64,000 bases of DNA from Halobaculum limi (GCF_029490015.1 NZ_CP120468.1:1-64000); one strand, 5' to 3'. Shown: positions 23,252 through 32,528, counted from the first letter of the stretch. Made by a program: numbers and translations. Notes: generated by a model from the letters alone, not told the origin.

Positions 23252-24400
<1,149 letters not shown>

Positions 24401-24441: not shown

Positions 24442-24753
24442 TAGCTTACTTCCAGGCGTGAGTCGCGTGACCGACTTGTGTTTTGTTCTGATTTCACCAC
24501 AGGTCGAGAACCGCTGGCTCTTCCTTGTACCGACGGGAGAGCGCTGCCGCCCACGCACGGACCTCAGGATCGTCGGTGATGGCGATAGATTCCCCGAGTC
24601 GAAGAGAGGCTCTCGTCGGTTAGGGGAATCGGCCTCCACTTTCGCCTCGCCTTCGCACACGTACTGATAAACACGTCAAGAGGCCAATCCAGCGAAATCA
24701 GTCCGCACAGGCCAGAACGTACCAGTACGGTCGAAAGGCGAAGGACCGTTTCC
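24442..24753. other. Gene-free interval after the IS element
   Basis: No supported gene. It contains the remaining right end of the IS and the upstream region of the recA-like gene. A CCACTTTCGCC sequence near 24637 is a weak partial match to the shared element that follows. Confidence 0.4.
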
Positions 24754-24782
24754 ACTTTCACCGAACACGGATGGCTGAGGCC
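24754..24782 (+). promoter_or_regulatory. Shared upstream element (recA-like copy)
   Basis: Twenty-four of 29 positions (ACTTTCAC, four variable bases, ACACGGA, one variable base, GGCTGAGGC) match 26754-26782 upstream of polB. It abuts a TATA-like CTTATCC about 26 bp before the ATG at 24811, so it occupies the BRE/operator position of what is probably a leaderless promoter. Confidence 0.7.
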
Positions 24783-24810
24783 CTTATCCGTCGCCGTCGA
24801 TGTCCTGTGT

Positions 24811-25560
24811 ATGAATTGCACCGACGCACACGCCGGCGTCGAACTCCCGACCCTCGATCCGGGAATTACGCTCCTCAGTATCGACTCCGAACTCGGTATC
24901 GAGCCACTGTGTGCCGTCGTCCTCGATCACCTCCTCGAAGCGTCTGGTGAGGTAGTCTGGGTCGACGCAGGCGGGCACGTCCAGACGCGGACGCTCACAC
25001 GACTTGCACCACACCCACGGTATCTCGACCGAATTACCACGGCTCGTGGGTTCACCGCCTATCAACACGCCTCGTTGCTGGATCGTCTCCCACGCATCAC
25101 CTCAGATCTCATCGCAAATGGGGCGGAGCTGTCACTCGTCGTCGTCCCAGCAATGGATCTGCAATATCGTGAGGATGACGTGCCTCGCGAGCAGGCACAG
25201 GAGCTCCTTGTGCGTCGCCTCGCCACACTCGCGGGTGTCGCTCGCGAGCGGGATGTTCCAGTGCTGCTCACTCGCGCTCGCGAAGACGACCTGAGTGCGC
25301 CGCTGTCAGCTGCTGCCCACGAGACGCTCACGTGTTCGAAGACGCGATTCGGGCCGCGCTTCAGTGGGGAGGAAGCCGACGACGAGACGCTCGTGTATCA
25401 CACCGGCGACGGGTGGATGCAGACCACGCTCGCGTTCTGGCGGGAGATCCTCGAACACCGGGCCCGAGCAGTGGGCGGCGTCATTGATGAGTCGGATGCT
25501 GGAGCCACCCCTGCGCCTGAGTCCGGGCCATCAGCGCCTGCCACGCCGGAGGGGTGGTAA
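24811..25560 (+). CDS. RecA/RadA-superfamily protein with degenerate ATP site
   Basis: A 249-residue protein with the alternating strand-helix pattern of a RecA core: ITLLSIDSELGIEPLC where the P-loop strand should be, VVWVDAGG, then LSLVVVPAMDLQY in the Walker B position and VPVLLTRARE. The GxxxxGKT loop is absent, so ATP hydrolysis is doubtful. It is probably leaderless (TATA at about -26). A small coiled-coil gene follows after 2 bp and polB lies 1.3 kb downstream. By analogy to bacterial ImuA/SulA-like RecA relatives that partner error-prone polymerases, it may be a polymerase accessory factor; that is inference. Confidence 0.7.
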   Translation: MNCTDAHAGVELPTLDPGITLLSIDSELGIEPLCAVVLDHLLEASGEVVWVDAGGHVQTRTLTRLAPHPRYLDRITTARGFTAYQHASLLDRLPRITSDLIANGAELSLVVVPAMDLQYREDDVPREQAQELLVRRLATLAGVARERDVPVLLTRAREDDLSAPLSAAAHETLTCSKTRFGPRFSGEEADDETLVYHTGDGWMQTTLAFWREILEHRARAVGGVIDESDAGATPAPESGPSAPATPEGW

Positions 25561-25562
25561 GT

Positions 25563-25835
25563 ATGGGACGGACGAACCCGACGTTCCGAGACCTCCTCTC
25601 GCGAATGGAAGACGAGTGGAGTGACTTCCGGCGGGCGCTGCGTCGTCGCCACCAGCCACTGTTCGACCGGTTGTTCACCTACGCTCGCGAGCACGCCGAT
25701 GCTGCGAGCAACCTGAATCACCCCGACCGGCTCGCACCAGTGTTGATGAGCATCTCGATCGAGCAAGAGGCCCGCATCGACGACCTCGAAGAGCGAGTTG
25801 CGGCGCTTGAGGCCCACGTAGAAGAGGAGGAATAG
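25563..25835 (+). CDS. Small coiled-coil protein in the recA-like/polB locus
   Basis: A 90-residue charged protein. The N-terminal half is basic and helical (FRRALRRRHQPLFDRL), and the C-terminal third (residues about 60-90) is a heptad coiled coil ending in a run of Glu. The ATG at 25563 follows the recA-like stop by 2 bp with a GGAGGGG site, so the two are translationally coupled. It is probably an oligomerising partner of the RecA-like protein. I do not recognise a named family with certainty. Confidence 0.7.
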   Translation: MGRTNPTFRDLLSRMEDEWSDFRRALRRRHQPLFDRLFTYAREHADAASNLNHPDRLAPVLMSISIEQEARIDDLEERVAALEAHVEEEE

Positions 25836-25930
25836 CGTATGTCGGTAGCTCAATCTTGGAACTGTACGAACAGCTGTCTCTCTCGTCCCCGTCTTCTGAC
25901 ATACCGAGTCAAGCGGTCGGTCAGTCCCGA

Positions 25931-26176
25931 CTACCGGTGTTCGTCTATCCATCGGCACCACTCCCGGAAGTCGTTCGCACCACATTGCTCAGCGATGCTC
26001 TGGAGGGTGCCGATACGAACGCGGTCGTGGAGTGGGACGGTGACCGTCCGCTTCTCCCCTGTAACGGGATGGGTGTACTTCAGCACTGCGTGGTCACCAC
26101 GGGTTCTGTCGTGGCGATAGCCGAACTTCTGGAGGACCTTGACGATCTCCCGCCCAGAGAAGTCGCGTGTCACCAC
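25931..26176 (-). CDS. hicA: HicA family toxin (mRNA interferase)
   Basis: An 81-residue HicA with the dsRNA-binding-like fold. The N-terminal SGREIVKVLQKFGY, catalytic-His segment RGDHAVLKY and VPLHDRVRIGTLQSIAEQCG are all present. HicA cleaves mRNA when not bound by HicB. The GTG start at 26176 directly abuts the hicB stop. The cassette lies on the opposite strand between the recA-like and polB genes, as an insertion into that locus. Confidence 0.88.
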   Translation of the reverse strand: MVTRDFSGREIVKVLQKFGYRHDRTRGDHAVLKYTHPVTGEKRTVTVPLHDRVRIGTLQSIAEQCGANDFREWCRWIDEHR

Positions 26177-26383
26177 CTACGAATCCTCGAACCACGGCGC
26201 GTCCGGTTCGGGGGAATCCGTGTCGTCGGCGCGAGCCTCTTCGGTTACCGCGATCGCCTCGTCGAGATTCTGAAGGGCTTCTTGGCGGGTCTCGCCCTGA
26301 CTCGCCACGCCGGTCTCTTGGTCGATGGCCGACCACCAGCTGTCGTCCTCTTCGACGAGGCGTATTTCGCGCCCAGTACTCAT
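26177..26383 (-). CDS. hicB: HicB family antitoxin
   Basis: A 68-residue HicB-like antitoxin with the partial RNase-H-like fold: IRLVEEDDSWWSAIDQETGVASQGETRQEALQNLDEAI. It lacks a C-terminal DNA-binding domain, which is common in haloarchaeal HicB. The ATG at 26383 is preferred to one nine codons upstream. It precedes hicA with no gap, as expected for a coupled toxin-antitoxin pair. Confidence 0.85.
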   Translation of the reverse strand: MSTGREIRLVEEDDSWWSAIDQETGVASQGETRQEALQNLDEAIAVTEEARADDTDSPEPDAPWFEDS

Positions 26384-26753
26384 ACGACGAGATAGCGTGG
26401 TATCTCTCATAAGGGTTCGGTCGGGTTGCCCGAAGCTGCGCTCTACGGCGCGTGCCTGTTCGGTTTCGCCGCCCCTCTACCGTTACGCAACCCCACCTTC
26501 GGTCCGAACTCCGTGTCCAGGTAGCTCTGTTCGATTCATTAGCCCCGTGCTGCATCCAGCCTCTCTATCTTTCTTCGAGGAGAGAATCCCGCCGTTTACC
26601 GTGGGAAAGATGTCACCTTTCTGCGTGAGTGGCGTCTACCTCCACCAATGAACGACCCGGGAGTACTTAACTGACAGATAGTACAGAACCGCCGGATACT
26701 GTTGCAGTGAGGCTTCTGTAGCGGGAGTTGTGAATTACAATCGGTACCGGACT
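26384..26753. other. Gene-free interval upstream of polB
   Basis: No supported gene; open frames here are arginine- or serine-rich shadows. The interval holds the hicBA promoter at its left end and leads into the shared upstream element and polB promoter at its right end. Confidence 0.4.
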
Positions 26754-26782
26754 ACTTTCACTCCACACGGACGGCTGAGGCA
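26754..26782 (+). promoter_or_regulatory. Shared upstream element (polB copy)
   Basis: Matches 24754-24782 at 24 of 29 positions. A TATA-like CATATTCC follows at 26781-26788, predicting a transcript start near 26811. Confidence 0.7.
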
Positions 26783-26813
26783 TATTCCTCACCACGTTCT
26801 GGATCCACCTGTG

Positions 26814-26864
26814 ATGACCGAGGCGAGATTAGATATCAAGACGCCATCCGAACAAGAGCGATAG
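26814..26864 (+). other. Possible 16-codon leader ORF before polB
   Basis: An ATG 30 bp after the TATA-like box opens a 16-codon frame ending in TAG 3 bp before the polB ATG, in the same frame as polB. It could be a leaderless leader peptide that couples translation to polB, or chance. Confidence 0.3.
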
Positions 26865-26867
26865 CAG

Positions 26868-29090
26868 ATGGTACTCACAATCGACTACGATGGCACGTCG
26901 GTCGTTGAGTGGCATCTCACAGCTGACGGCGTCGATCGAAGACGAGTCAGCGACTACCGACCGACGATGTACGTTGGCGCACCCGTCTCACAGTTGTACG
27001 GCGAGCAAGGTGGTCCAACACCGAATCCACGGATGCCGCGAGCGGGTGCACTCTCGGAATCGCTCGAAGCGCTCCAGTCGTTCCTCGACGGCCACGAGGC
27101 GGTTGTTGACCTCAGCCCTGATGTGTGGCGCCAGACGTTCCGGACATCGTTTCGACCGGTGTTGCGAGTCGAGTGTCGCCGGATTCAGGACGTCCGCTCG
27201 GTCGCAAAGCGTATTCACCAGTTCGGCGACCCCGATGAGCACACCTGTTACAACGTTGATCTCACACGCCAACTTCGCTACACCCTCGAAACCGACTGTG
27301 ACCCGAGTCCGGACACCTCGATTCGCGAGCTTCGGACGATGCGACTCGAGTTCCCGGCTCACGAATCGGAGCTGTCCGCCCTCTCGAAGCTCCGGGTCAA
27401 CGGGGAGCCAGTTGGAGCGTCGCCCCGAGCGGTTGCAGCGGCGGTCGCCGACCGCGTGGCCGATGTCGACCCAGACGTCCTCGTCGTCGACACCGCACGA
27501 GTCGTTCCCCTCCTGTTCGAAGCTGCCGAGGATTTCGACCTCCAGCCGTACGCGCTCGGCCGCGAGCCAGGGTACACCCAACTCGCGTCGGCCTCAACGT
27601 ACACGAGCTACGGACAAGTGGGCCACTCACCGGCGCGGTACTCGGTTCCGGGGCGGGTGATCCTCGACCGCTCGAACACGTTCTTCTACAGTGAGGCGGG
27701 GCTGGCGGGCTGTCTCGATCTCGTCGAGCGCGCTGGCCTCCCACTGCAAGAACTCGGCTGGGCGTCAATCGGCCGGGTGCTGACCGCGATGCAGATTCGA
27801 GAGGCTCGACGCCGGGGTGTGCTCGTGCCGTGGCGGGCGTGGCGCCCGGAGTTCTTCCGCTCGGCGGCAACGCTCGATACAGCCGACCGGGGTGGGACAA
27901 CGCTCGCGCCCGACGTCGGCGTTCACGAGGAAGTACACGAACTCGACTTCTCGTCAATGTACCCGAACATCATCCGCACGCGCAACATCTCCCCCGAGAC
28001 GGTGCGGTGTGGCTGTTGTGACAACGATGCGGTTCCAACCGTGGGGTATTCGATCTGTGAGCAGGATGGCTACCTCCCCGACGTCCTCGGGCCACTGATT
28101 GACGGGCGCAGTGAGATTAAACAGCAGATTCGCGAGACGGACGACCCCGAAGCGATCGCGAGACTGGAGTCACGCTCGTCGGCGATCAAGTGGATCCTCG
28201 TCTCGTGTTTCGGGTATCAGGGCTTCTCGAACGCGAAGTTTGGCCGGATCGAATGTCACGAGTCGATCAACGCGTTCGCTCGTGAGATCCTCCTCGATGC
28301 GAAAGCTGCACTCGAAGCCGGCGGGTGGCGCGTGCTTCACGGAATCGTCGATTCCATTTGGGTGACGCCAGCGCCCGATGTGCCCGAATCACAGCGCCGT
28401 CCGTTGGACGCGATTGCAGAGGAAGTGAGCGAAGCTGTGGGTATTGAGTTGGAGTATGAGGGTGCCTTCGACTGGGTTGCCTTTTGTCCGCGTCGTGGTG
28501 GGGATGGTGGGGCGCTGACGCGGTATTTCGGACGCCGGCGAGGCGTCGAGTATCCAGACGAGGGCCTCGGTGACGCGGTGAAGACGCGAGGGATCGAGTG
28601 CCGGCAGGACGATACGCCTGAATGGATCAACCGACTGCAAGCGACGCTGATCCGAACCCTCGATGAGACACACGACCCTGAAGCCGTGTGTGGCGTGCTT
28701 CGCGAATGTGTCACGCGGTTGGAAGAGGGTGAAGTTGACCCCGAGGAGTTACTGATCGAACAACGTGTCTCGAAGCGAGTAGAGCAGTACTCTCACGAGA
28801 CAGTGACCGTTGCCGCACTCAAGCGAGCGGAGTGGAAAGACTGTGCGTTAGCACCCGGCCAGCGAGTACGGTATCTGGTGACGGATGATGACGCCCGTGG
28901 GCTCGGGCGGGTACGGCTGGATCACGAGCCACTTCGCTCGTATGATGCGGGCTGGTATCGAGCCCAGGCGATACGGGCCGCTGAGAGTGTGCTGTCGGCG
29001 CTCGGGTGGGATCGAGAACGAATTGCGGAGTCACTATCGGCGACGTCAGCGCCGACGATTGGACAGTTCCACTCCTCATCAACGAACTGA
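26868..29090 (+). CDS. B-family DNA polymerase, exonuclease-degenerate (PolB2/Dpo2-like)
   Basis: A 740-residue DNA polymerase B. Polymerase motif A is ELDFSSMYPNII (Asp at about 360), motif B has Lys at about 441 in KWILVSCFGYQG, and motif C reads HGIVDS with the metal-binding Asp at about 495. The usual first Asp of DTD is Ile. The proofreading motifs are eroded: the expected DIE reads RLEFPAHE, and Exo II and Exo III acidic residues are not found in place. It therefore looks like a non-proofreading polymerase, compatible with PolB2/Dpo2-type translesion enzymes. The association with the recA-like gene by a shared promoter element supports a damage-tolerance role. Confidence 0.85.
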   Translation: MVLTIDYDGTSVVEWHLTADGVDRRRVSDYRPTMYVGAPVSQLYGEQGGPTPNPRMPRAGALSESLEALQSFLDGHEAVVDLSPDVWRQTFRTSFRPVLRVECRRIQDVRSVAKRIHQFGDPDEHTCYNVDLTRQLRYTLETDCDPSPDTSIRELRTMRLEFPAHESELSALSKLRVNGEPVGASPRAVAAAVADRVADVDPDVLVVDTARVVPLLFEAAEDFDLQPYALGREPGYTQLASASTYTSYGQVGHSPARYSVPGRVILDRSNTFFYSEAGLAGCLDLVERAGLPLQELGWASIGRVLTAMQIREARRRGVLVPWRAWRPEFFRSAATLDTADRGGTTLAPDVGVHEEVHELDFSSMYPNIIRTRNISPETVRCGCCDNDAVPTVGYSICEQDGYLPDVLGPLIDGRSEIKQQIRETDDPEAIARLESRSSAIKWILVSCFGYQGFSNAKFGRIECHESINAFAREILLDAKAALEAGGWRVLHGIVDSIWVTPAPDVPESQRRPLDAIAEEVSEAVGIELEYEGAFDWVAFCPRRGGDGGALTRYFGRRRGVEYPDEGLGDAVKTRGIECRQDDTPEWINRLQATLIRTLDETHDPEAVCGVLRECVTRLEEGEVDPEELLIEQRVSKRVEQYSHETVTVAALKRAEWKDCALAPGQRVRYLVTDDDARGLGRVRLDHEPLRSYDAGWYRAQAIRAAESVLSALGWDRERIAESLSATSAPTIGQFHSSSTN

Positions 29091-31262: not shown

Positions 31263-32528
31263 TCAAACCAAGCCCTTCCGCTCGGCGTTCTCTCGAATCG
31301 GCTGTACCTCTAACTCCGACGCAGTCTCCTCAAACACCTGAAACACTGACTCCAGCGAAATATCCAACTCGTAGTAGTTCTTGTTGCCCCGTCCGGTCGA
31401 CACATCAACCTGGCTCAAGATCCCGTTCAAGTCGAGGTTGCTCAGGTGGTCGTGAATCCGCCGCCGCTTGAGCGGATCATACCCGTTCGCCAGTGCAACC
31501 TGCTGGTACTCGTCGTGGATCACGCGGGTCCGTTCGGGACTCTCTTCGCGAGCCTCAATCGCACACATCGTCAACAGCGTGAGCTTTGCGTGTTGCGTGA
31601 GCGAGCGAATCCCCTCAAGCACTTGTTGCTGCTCCACGAGTTGGTTCGCCTCCTCAACGTGAGCTTCGTCGAGTGCGATCTCCCCGCCAGTGTTCTCGCT
31701 TGCCTCCCGCTTTGCGAGGTCTCCTGCCTTCCGGAGGATGTCGAGTGCTTGGCGGGCAGAGCCCCGATCACGGGCAGCATATGCAGCCGCCAGGCGAACT
31801 GCCGCGGTCGTCTCGACATCGTCGTGGAACGCCTGTTCAGCGCGCTTCTCTAAGATCGCGGTGAGCTGCGTTGCATCATACGGTGGGAACGTAATTTCCT
31901 CTTCACACAAGGTATCGATTACCCGTGCTCCGAGCTGATCGCGGAACGAGTAGTCGTTCGAGATACCGATGATCCCGAGTTTCGCATCGAGGTCGTAGGT
32001 CTTGCGGGCTCGCGGCAGCTCGTAGAGAATATCGTCGTCTGAGCCGATGTGGTCGATCTCGTCAAGGACGATGGCGATCGTCCCACCAACCGATTCGAGG
32101 TCCTTCCGGAGTTCGCGCATCAACCGCTTTTGCGGATAGCCTGTCTCGGGGATCGGTTCGCGATCTACTTCGACACTCGTGAGTTGGTGGTCGGGATTTC
32201 GGAACTCGTTCACGAGATTGGAAGCAACTTGATACGACGACGTGAGCCCTGTACAGTTGAGTTCAACAAGTTGGACGTCGATGTCATCGTATGCCTGTGC
32301 GTCCTGACGAAGTTCAGTCAGGAGTTGATGGGTCGCAGCCGTCTTCCCGACGCCTGTGGGACCGTACAGAAAGATGTTGTCGGGTTGATTGCCGTCGATA
32401 ATCGGCTGGAGTGCGGTCGCATACTCGTCGAGCTTCTCCCCCCGCTCTTCGAGACTCTCCGGTTGATAGTCTTCCCGGAGGACATCGCGAGTTCGAAAGA
32501 CATGAGATTCACGGCGAAACCGGCCCAT
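31263..32528 (-). CDS. Orc1/Cdc6-family replication initiator
   Basis: A 421-residue AAA+ initiator. Walker A GPTGVGKT lies at residues 56-63 and Walker B IVLDEIDHIG at about 153-162. The sensor-1 region is LGIIGISND and the C-terminal winged helix ends with GRGNKNYYELDI. Orc1/Cdc6 proteins bind origin recognition boxes next to their own gene and load the MCM helicase. Origin-like repeats of two sequence types flank this gene, so it is probably the initiator of the replicon or element. The ATG at 32528 starts the common MGRFRRESHVF-type N-terminus. Confidence 0.93.
   Translation of the reverse strand: MGRFRRESHVFRTRDVLREDYQPESLEERGEKLDEYATALQPIIDGNQPDNIFLYGPTGVGKTAATHQLLTELRQDAQAYDDIDVQLVELNCTGLTSSYQVASNLVNEFRNPDHQLTSVEVDREPIPETGYPQKRLMRELRKDLESVGGTIAIVLDEIDHIGSDDDILYELPRARKTYDLDAKLGIIGISNDYSFRDQLGARVIDTLCEEEITFPPYDATQLTAILEKRAEQAFHDDVETTAAVRLAAAYAARDRGSARQALDILRKAGDLAKREASENTGGEIALDEAHVEEANQLVEQQQVLEGIRSLTQHAKLTLLTMCAIEAREESPERTRVIHDEYQQVALANGYDPLKRRRIHDHLSNLDLNGILSQVDVSTGRGNKNYYELDISLESVFQVFEETASELEVQPIRENAERKGLV

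What the first reader, a model, noticed from the sequence alone, without database searches (positions are those of the whole stretch)
24754..29090. RecA-like protein and degenerate PolB share a promoter element: a candidate mutagenesis/translesion module
Seen: a 29-bp element (24 matches) lies directly upstream of TATA-like boxes of both the recA-like gene (24754-24782) and polB (26754-26782), exactly 2000 bp apart. The RecA-like protein lacks a P-loop, and PolB lacks proofreading residues. Known: bacterial ImuA (RecA relative) with error-prone polymerases, and archaeal PolB2/Dpo2 in damage tolerance. Inferred: the genes are co-regulated, possibly by DNA damage, and act together with the coiled-coil protein.
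Basis: partly seen in the sequence, partly recalled or inferred. Interest (0 to 1): 0.82.

Follow-up and report, generated by a model that had tools for sequence, protein, structure and literature searches.

The report
UV-type promoter box on archaeal mutasome
In this salt-loving archaeon, the genes for an error-prone DNA-copying machine (a dead RecA-like protein, a small helper and a degenerate DNA polymerase) carry the same promoter signal that precedes UV-induced repair genes in related archaea, so the cell very probably switches the whole machine on when its DNA is damaged.

Summary
The 29-bp element (24/29 identical) lies at 24754 and 26754 and nowhere else in the genome within 3 mismatches of its pattern. 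The genes form the known PolB2 translesion module: iRadA (RadA fold, no P-loop), PPB2 (MGRT N-terminus) and PolB2. The element's core (TTYCACTTTCAC) is the UV-B box described for Halobacterium radA1 and top6B; in the window's genome and family it also precedes radA, rpa, top6B, orc1, a DUF5790 gene and a small conserved gene. The extended form (CACTTYCAC-N10-YGGCT-TATA) precedes iRadA in all 13 same-genus promoters examined and in further genera of the family. PolB2 has its own copy only where a toxin-type insert separates it from iRadA-PPB2 (4/4 split, 0/6 contiguous loci). Both window promoters have a second box exactly 116 bp upstream. Most other haloarchaeal iRadA promoters carry a different, origin-box-like tandem GGAA element, shared with a linked Orc1/Cdc6 gene, so the mutasome appears to have been rewired between two probable damage circuits. 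Co-regulation is strongly supported; damage induction and the regulator's identity are inferred.

The parts
24637..24671 (+). distal box of the iradA promoter: CACTTTC (24637-24643) followed by GATAAA (24666-24671), exactly 116 bp upstream of the proximal box
   Evidence: the 116-bp spacing is shared by 8 of the 13 same-genus iRadA promoters
24783..24788 (+). TATA-like box CTTATC of iradA
   Evidence: spacing to the start codon fits a leaderless transcript (inference)
24811..25560 (+). iradA: RadA/Rad51-fold protein without P-loop (249 aa)
   Evidence: NCBIfam RadB E 1.8e-4, below cut-off; AlphaFold2 model pLDDT 77.5; Foldseek to RadA/Rad51/Dmc1 E 1.9e-12
25563..25835 (+). ppb2 (arCOG07300-type small coiled-coil protein, N-terminus MGRT)
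   Evidence: alignment of 13 relatives with invariant MGR start; PMC11791011
25931..26176 (-). HicA-type toxin gene inserted between ppb2 and polB2
   Evidence: PF07927 E 6.8e-15
26177..26410 (-). partner of HicA (DUF7387, HicB-like by position)
   Evidence: PF24113 E 9.2e-17
26637..26670 (+). distal box of the polB2 promoter: TACCTCC (26637-26643) followed by TACTTAA, exactly 116 bp upstream of the proximal box
   Evidence: same spacing in two other split loci (L064, L073)
26781..26788 (+). TATA-like box CATATTCC of polB2
26814..26864 (+). 16-codon leader reading frame MTEARLDIKTPSEQER*, ending in a probable remnant of the PPB2 C-terminus (compare ETPVERER*), 3 nt before polB2
26868..29090 (+). 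polB2: PolB2-group DNA polymerase, catalytic DTDS changed to IVDS, no exonuclease domain match
   Evidence: NF004418 936 bits (cut-off 692); PF00136 only
31263..32528 (-). Orc1/Cdc6 gene near the module (421 aa, a different subfamily from the Orc linked to iRadA in other haloarchaea; promoter without the box)
   Evidence: TIGR02928 383 bits; upstream sequence

Best explanation
iradA-ppb2 and polB2 encode one translesion DNA polymerase complex (PolB2 mutasome). In this clade both transcription units are controlled by the haloarchaeal UV box CACTTYCAC, which sits just upstream of BRE/TATA in an extended form (CACTTYCAC-N10-YGGCT-TATA), with a second box 116 bp further upstream. After DNA damage a regulator acting at the box would raise transcription of iradA, ppb2 and polB2 together with radA, rpa and top6B. 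The three proteins would then assemble and extend mismatched primer ends past lesions, at the cost of mutations. PolB2 has its own copy of the promoter region because a toxin-antitoxin insertion separated it from an originally contiguous operon. Shown here: gene identities, element conservation, its placement before each transcription unit, the 116-bp spacing, the shared box at radA, rpa, top6B and orc1, and the remnant of ppb2 before polB2. Inferred from published work on relatives: damage induction, complex assembly and translesion activity. Unknown: which protein binds the box, and whether it activates or represses.
For: Element unique to the two sites in the genome. Present before iRadA in all 13 promoters of the genus examined and, as ACTTYCRC-N10-TGGCT, in ten more genomes of two other genera of the family. 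Upstream of polB2 in 4/4 split loci and 0/6 contiguous loci (Fisher p 0.005, not corrected for relatedness); split loci keep a PPB2 C-terminal remnant before polB2. Core identical to the UV-B box of Halobacterium radA1, top6B, vng17 and vng280, about 50 bp before the start codon (PMC2556686). In 24 family genomes the box precedes radA (10), DUF5790 (10), a small protein gene (10), rpa (5), top6B (5) and orc1 (5). Module identity; PMC11791011. [quoted passage not shown]
Against: No expression data exist for this organism. Box-bearing genes include replication genes (orc1, top6B, rpa), so the signal could be replication or growth control. Outside this family most iRadA promoters lack the box and carry another element. 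UV induction of most box genes in Halobacterium is modest (1.5-2 fold) except radA1. In two split loci (L066, L073) the spacing inside the polB2 element is shorter. HMM support for iRadA is below the RadB cut-off.
Confidence: 0.75

Rival explanations
1. The box marks a replication or growth-phase regulon and not a damage response: radA, rpa, top6B, orc1 and the mutasome would be expressed together during replication.
For: Box upstream of orc1, rpa and top6B; basal expression of such genes is needed in growing cells.
Against: The box was first recognised because its genes were UV-B induced in Halobacterium (PMC2556686); PolB2 is dispensable in Halobacterium (PMC1906834) and damage-inducible in Sulfolobus (PMC7390963).
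Confidence: 0.17
2. The two copies are only the trace of a duplication of the promoter region during operon splitting and the sequence has no regulatory role beyond the core promoter.
For: Split loci carry a second promoter and a PPB2 remnant.
Against: The box and the 116-bp spacing persist while surrounding sequence has diverged, and the element is present before iRadA in contiguous loci and in other genera.
Confidence: 0.05
3. The element is the operator of the inserted toxin-antitoxin modules, which control polB2 as a neighbouring gene.
For: A toxin-antitoxin or toxin-like gene lies between ppb2 and polB2 in every split locus examined.
Against: The inserts differ (HicA/DUF7387, Fic/Doc, PemK-like, UPF0175-DUF3368) while the element is the same, and the element also precedes iRadA where no insert exists.
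Confidence: 0.03

Closest known systems
PolB2 mutasome (PolB2 + PPB2/arCOG07300 + iRadA; Makarova 2014 PMC4104785, Timinskas 2025 PMC11791011)
   Same: All three genes, gene order iRadA-PPB2-PolB2, inactive RadA fold, MGRT start of PPB2, degenerate polymerase and exonuclease sites
   Different: polB2 is split off by a toxin-antitoxin insert and has its own promoter; no promoter element was found described in the papers read
UV-B box TTTCACTTTCA of Halobacterium sp. NRC-1 radA1, vng17, top6B and vng280 (Boubriak 2008, PMC2556686)
   Same: Same core sequence, same place (about 50-60 bp before the start codon, upstream of TATA), partly the same regulon (radA, top6B)
   Different: Mutasome promoters have an extended downstream half (YGGCT) and a second box 116 bp upstream, which the window genome's other box genes lack; iRadA and PolB2 were not in the published set
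Sulfolobus Orc1-2 / DDRE (ANTTTC) damage-response circuit (PMC9738581)
   Same: Controls a damage response; ACTTTC fits ANTTTC; Orc1/Cdc6 genes accompany polB2 in archaea
   Different: A six-base match is weak; binding untested; the window's nearby Orc lacks the box in its own promoter
Bacterial ImuA-ImuB-DnaE2 mutasome
   Same: RecA-like protein working with an error-prone polymerase (from general knowledge)
   Different: Different polymerase family and different RecA-like lineage; analogy only

Membership tests
PolB2 mutasome | PolB2-group B-family polymerase with altered DxD and no proofreading domain | tested here: met
   NF004418 936 bits; IVDS at the catalytic motif; no exonuclease Pfam match
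PolB2 mutasome | iRadA: RadA/Rad51 fold, no N-terminal helical domain, no ATPase site | tested here: met
   AF2 model, Foldseek to RadA/Rad51 E 1.9e-12, TM about 0.6; no Walker A motif in 13 relatives
PolB2 mutasome | PPB2 with conserved N-terminal MGRT | tested here: met
   MGR invariant, MGRT or MGRS in all 13
PolB2 mutasome | Genes next to each other in the same orientation | tested here: met
   order iRadA-PPB2-(HicA pair, opposite strand)-PolB2
PolB2 mutasome | Physical complex and translesion activity | not testable with these tools
   needs purified proteins or genetics
Haloarchaeal UV-B box | TTTCACTTTCA about 50 bp upstream of the start codon, upstream of TATA | tested here: met
   TTTCCACTTTCAC ending at 24761 for iradA (one base longer inside than the published 11-mer); polB2 has TACTTTCAC, a shorter match
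Haloarchaeal UV-B box | Induction of the gene by UV-B | not testable with these tools
   no expression data for this genome
Sulfolobus Orc1-2 DDRE circuit | ANTTTC hexamer bound by an Orc1-2 regulator that also binds its own promoter | tested here: inconclusive
   ACTTTC present; the promoter of the Orc gene in the window lacks it; binding not testable
ImuA | Sequence membership in a bacterial ImuA family, with Y-family ImuB and C-family DnaE2 partners | tested here: not met
   no ImuA family match in Pfam or NCBIfam; structural matches are RadA/Rad51; the polymerase is B-family

The most novel reading that the evidence does not exclude
Haloarchaea have two damage circuits for the PolB2 mutasome. 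In most lineages a short Orc1/Cdc6 paralog encoded next to iRadA acts as an autoregulated damage regulator through an origin-box-like operator (tandem GGAA-N5-GGAA) found at both its own and the iRadA promoter. In the window's clade the linked Orc and its operator were lost and the mutasome was moved into the radA/UV-box regulon.
Probability: 0.45. Interest if true: 0.8.

Novelty: new variant of a known kind. Interest (0 to 1): 0.64.

Why it matters
What controls the DNA-damage response of euryarchaea is an open question. This ties the error-prone PolB2 machine, known genetically from Sulfolobus, to a published but little-followed UV motif in haloarchaea, gives a defined regulon (radA, rpa, top6B, orc1, DUF5790, a small protein, the mutasome) and points to a second, Orc-linked element elsewhere in the group. 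Both elements are short, at fixed positions, and can be mutated in genetically tractable species.

Tried and rejected
G302:C16 hit of the element (2 mismatches) in a genome without the module: it lies over the start codon of a glutamate-synthase-like gene (MAEP...), rejected as chance. G210 hit with 3 mismatches: no promoter context, rejected. G119 hit (L003), 3 mismatches, in front of a TATA-like box of a 39-aa reading frame: possibly a genuine box gene, left open. The reversed-pattern control for TTYCACTTTCACY is not independent, because CACTTTCAC reads nearly the same backwards, so counts against it were not used as a test. A genome scan for the tandem-GGAA pattern found mostly unrelated places plus inverted repeats near orc genes. 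The window's own Orc as a member of the box regulon: its promoter lacks the box. A distal box at radA, rpa, DUF5790 and the small gene: not present. A meaning for the exact 2000-bp distance: rejected, it differs in other split loci.

Full report
The observation. Some pair this similar is expected about once in a 64-kb window, but given the first copy the second is expected 2e-5 times, and the next best match is 18/29. In the whole 3.48-Mb genome the pattern occurs only at these two places.

The genes. The RecA-like protein has a RadA/Rad51 fold (AlphaFold2 mean pLDDT 77.5; Foldseek best match RadA, E 1.9e-12) without a Walker A motif. The 90-aa coiled-coil protein begins MGRT; MGR is invariant in 13 relatives. 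The polymerase is PolB2 (NF004418, 936 bits against a cut-off of 692), has IVDS in place of DTDS and no exonuclease domain match. These are the three parts of the PolB2 mutasome described by Makarova 2014 (PMC4104785) and Timinskas 2025 (PMC11791011). The module is therefore known. The word 'promoter' does not occur in the main text of the 2025 paper, and a full-text search for the UV box sequence found no paper linking it to PolB2.

The element in relatives. In Halobaculum saliterrae the element precedes both iRadA and polB2 where the operon is split, and only iRadA where it is contiguous. Among 11 same-genus genomes, all matches with at most 2 mismatches lie before iRadA or polB2, apart from one chance match over the start of a gltB-like gene. 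Aligned promoters show a conserved box CACTTYCAC, then about 10 bases, then YGGCT, then TATA. Ten further loci from two other genera of the family carry CACTTYCRC-N10-TGGCT followed by TTTTA in the same place.

Split and contiguous loci. Four loci (window, G395/H. saliterrae, G158, G260) have an insert between ppb2 and polB2; all four have the element before polB2. Six contiguous loci have none there (Fisher p 0.005, relatedness not corrected). In the split loci a short reading frame directly before polB2 ends like the PPB2 C-terminus (ETPVERER*; TPSEQER* in the window), which suggests that an insertion broke a contiguous operon. The inserts differ: HicA with a DUF7387 partner in the window, a Fic/Doc protein in G158, a PemK-like protein in G260, UPF0175 with DUF3368 in H. 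saliterrae.

A second box. Both window promoters have another YACYTYC box exactly 116 bp upstream, each followed about 29 bp later by a TATA-like sequence. The same spacing occurs in 8 of the 13 same-genus iRadA promoters (window included) and in 3 of 4 polB2 promoters of split loci (window included); others have 107 or 87 bp or no clear distal box. The window genome's radA, rpa, DUF5790 and small-gene promoters lack it. Its function is unknown; 116 bp is close to eleven helical turns.

What the box is. Boubriak 2008 (PMC2556686) found TTTCACTTTCA about 50 bp before the start codons of UV-B induced radA1, vng17, top6B and vng280 in Halobacterium and before radA in other haloarchaea. In the window's genome TTYCACTTTCAC occurs 8 times; six are in promoter position, before iradA, radA, rpa, a DUF5790 gene, a 61-aa gene and a leader upstream of ilvA. 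In 24 genomes of the family the downstream genes cluster into a small 55-61-aa protein (10 genomes), radA (10), DUF5790 (10), rpa (5), top6B (5), orc1 (5) and a few others. The mutasome thus shares its box with core recombination and replication-repair genes.

A second promoter class. Of 80 iRadA loci sampled across the order, 11 carry the UV box and 45 are assigned to a second class (at most one mismatch to a tandem repeat GGAA-N5-GGAA just upstream of TATA). With spacing of 4 or 5, exact repeats are present in 45 of 79 promoters and 0 of 79 control stretches. A short Orc1/Cdc6 gene often lies directly upstream of iRadA in this class (19 of 45 in a truncated list, against 0 of 11 in the UV-box class; p 0.01, relatedness not corrected). 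The promoter of that Orc gene carries the same tandem repeat in 19 of 30 cases against 0 of 30 control stretches, and one genome has a matching variant (TTCTGGCACTTCTGGC) at both genes. Near-identical sequences form inverted pairs beside orc genes in two other genomes, as expected of origin recognition boxes, and a published haloarchaeal ORB-like element contains CGGAAAC (PMC3528665). This Orc subfamily is absent from the window's genome at the threshold used. Linkage of polB2 to an Orc gene was noted in 2007 with function unknown (PMC1906834). The simplest reading is an autoregulated Orc controlling the mutasome in most haloarchaea, similar in plan to Sulfolobus Orc1-2 (PMC9738581), and replacement of that control by the UV box in the window's clade. 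Binding is not shown for either element.

Mechanism and limits. Shown: gene identities, element conservation, placement at each transcription unit and the shared regulon. Inferred: damage induction (from Halobacterium UV-B data and from Sulfolobus Dpo2, PMC7390963), complex formation and translesion synthesis. Not known: the regulator. Counts come from a sample of genomes and related sequences are not independent.

Noticed in passing
window 25931-26410; L022 5441-6596; L066 213-1010; L073 (reverse strand) 482-1206: The gap between ppb2 and polB2 is an insertion slot for different toxin-type genes (HicA pair, Fic/Doc, PemK-like, UPF0175-DUF3368), three of them next to a MarR-like winged-helix gene.
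   Followed up: partly
L129-L208 upstream regions; L293-L322: Most haloarchaeal iRadA promoters and those of a linked short Orc1/Cdc6 gene share an ORB-like tandem GGAA-N5-GGAA element.
   Followed up: partly
window 24637 and 26637: A second box exactly 116 bp upstream of each proximal box, with its own TATA-like sequence.
   Followed up: partly
L098, L213, L219, L228, L231, L249, L259, L265, L273: The UV box also precedes a conserved leader beginning near ATGCACG; where a downstream gene could be read it is ilvA (threonine ammonia-lyase); reason unknown.
   Followed up: no
L097 and relatives (10 genomes): A 55-61-aa conserved protein with a C-terminal motif like LERRGGRTYLV has the UV box in its promoter in ten genomes; the window genome's copy matches no Pfam or NCBIfam family.
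   Followed up: no
G400:C1:132878-132932 (L212): Run of at least eight overlapping TTTCAC repeats.
   Followed up: no
window 23252-24400: A TnpB-family RNA-guided nuclease gene ends about 240 bp upstream of the iradA distal box.
   Followed up: no
L023 7001-9220 (G395:C3): The contiguous second mutasome copy of Halobaculum saliterrae has in-frame stops in the polB2 match, so it may be a pseudogene.
   Followed up: no
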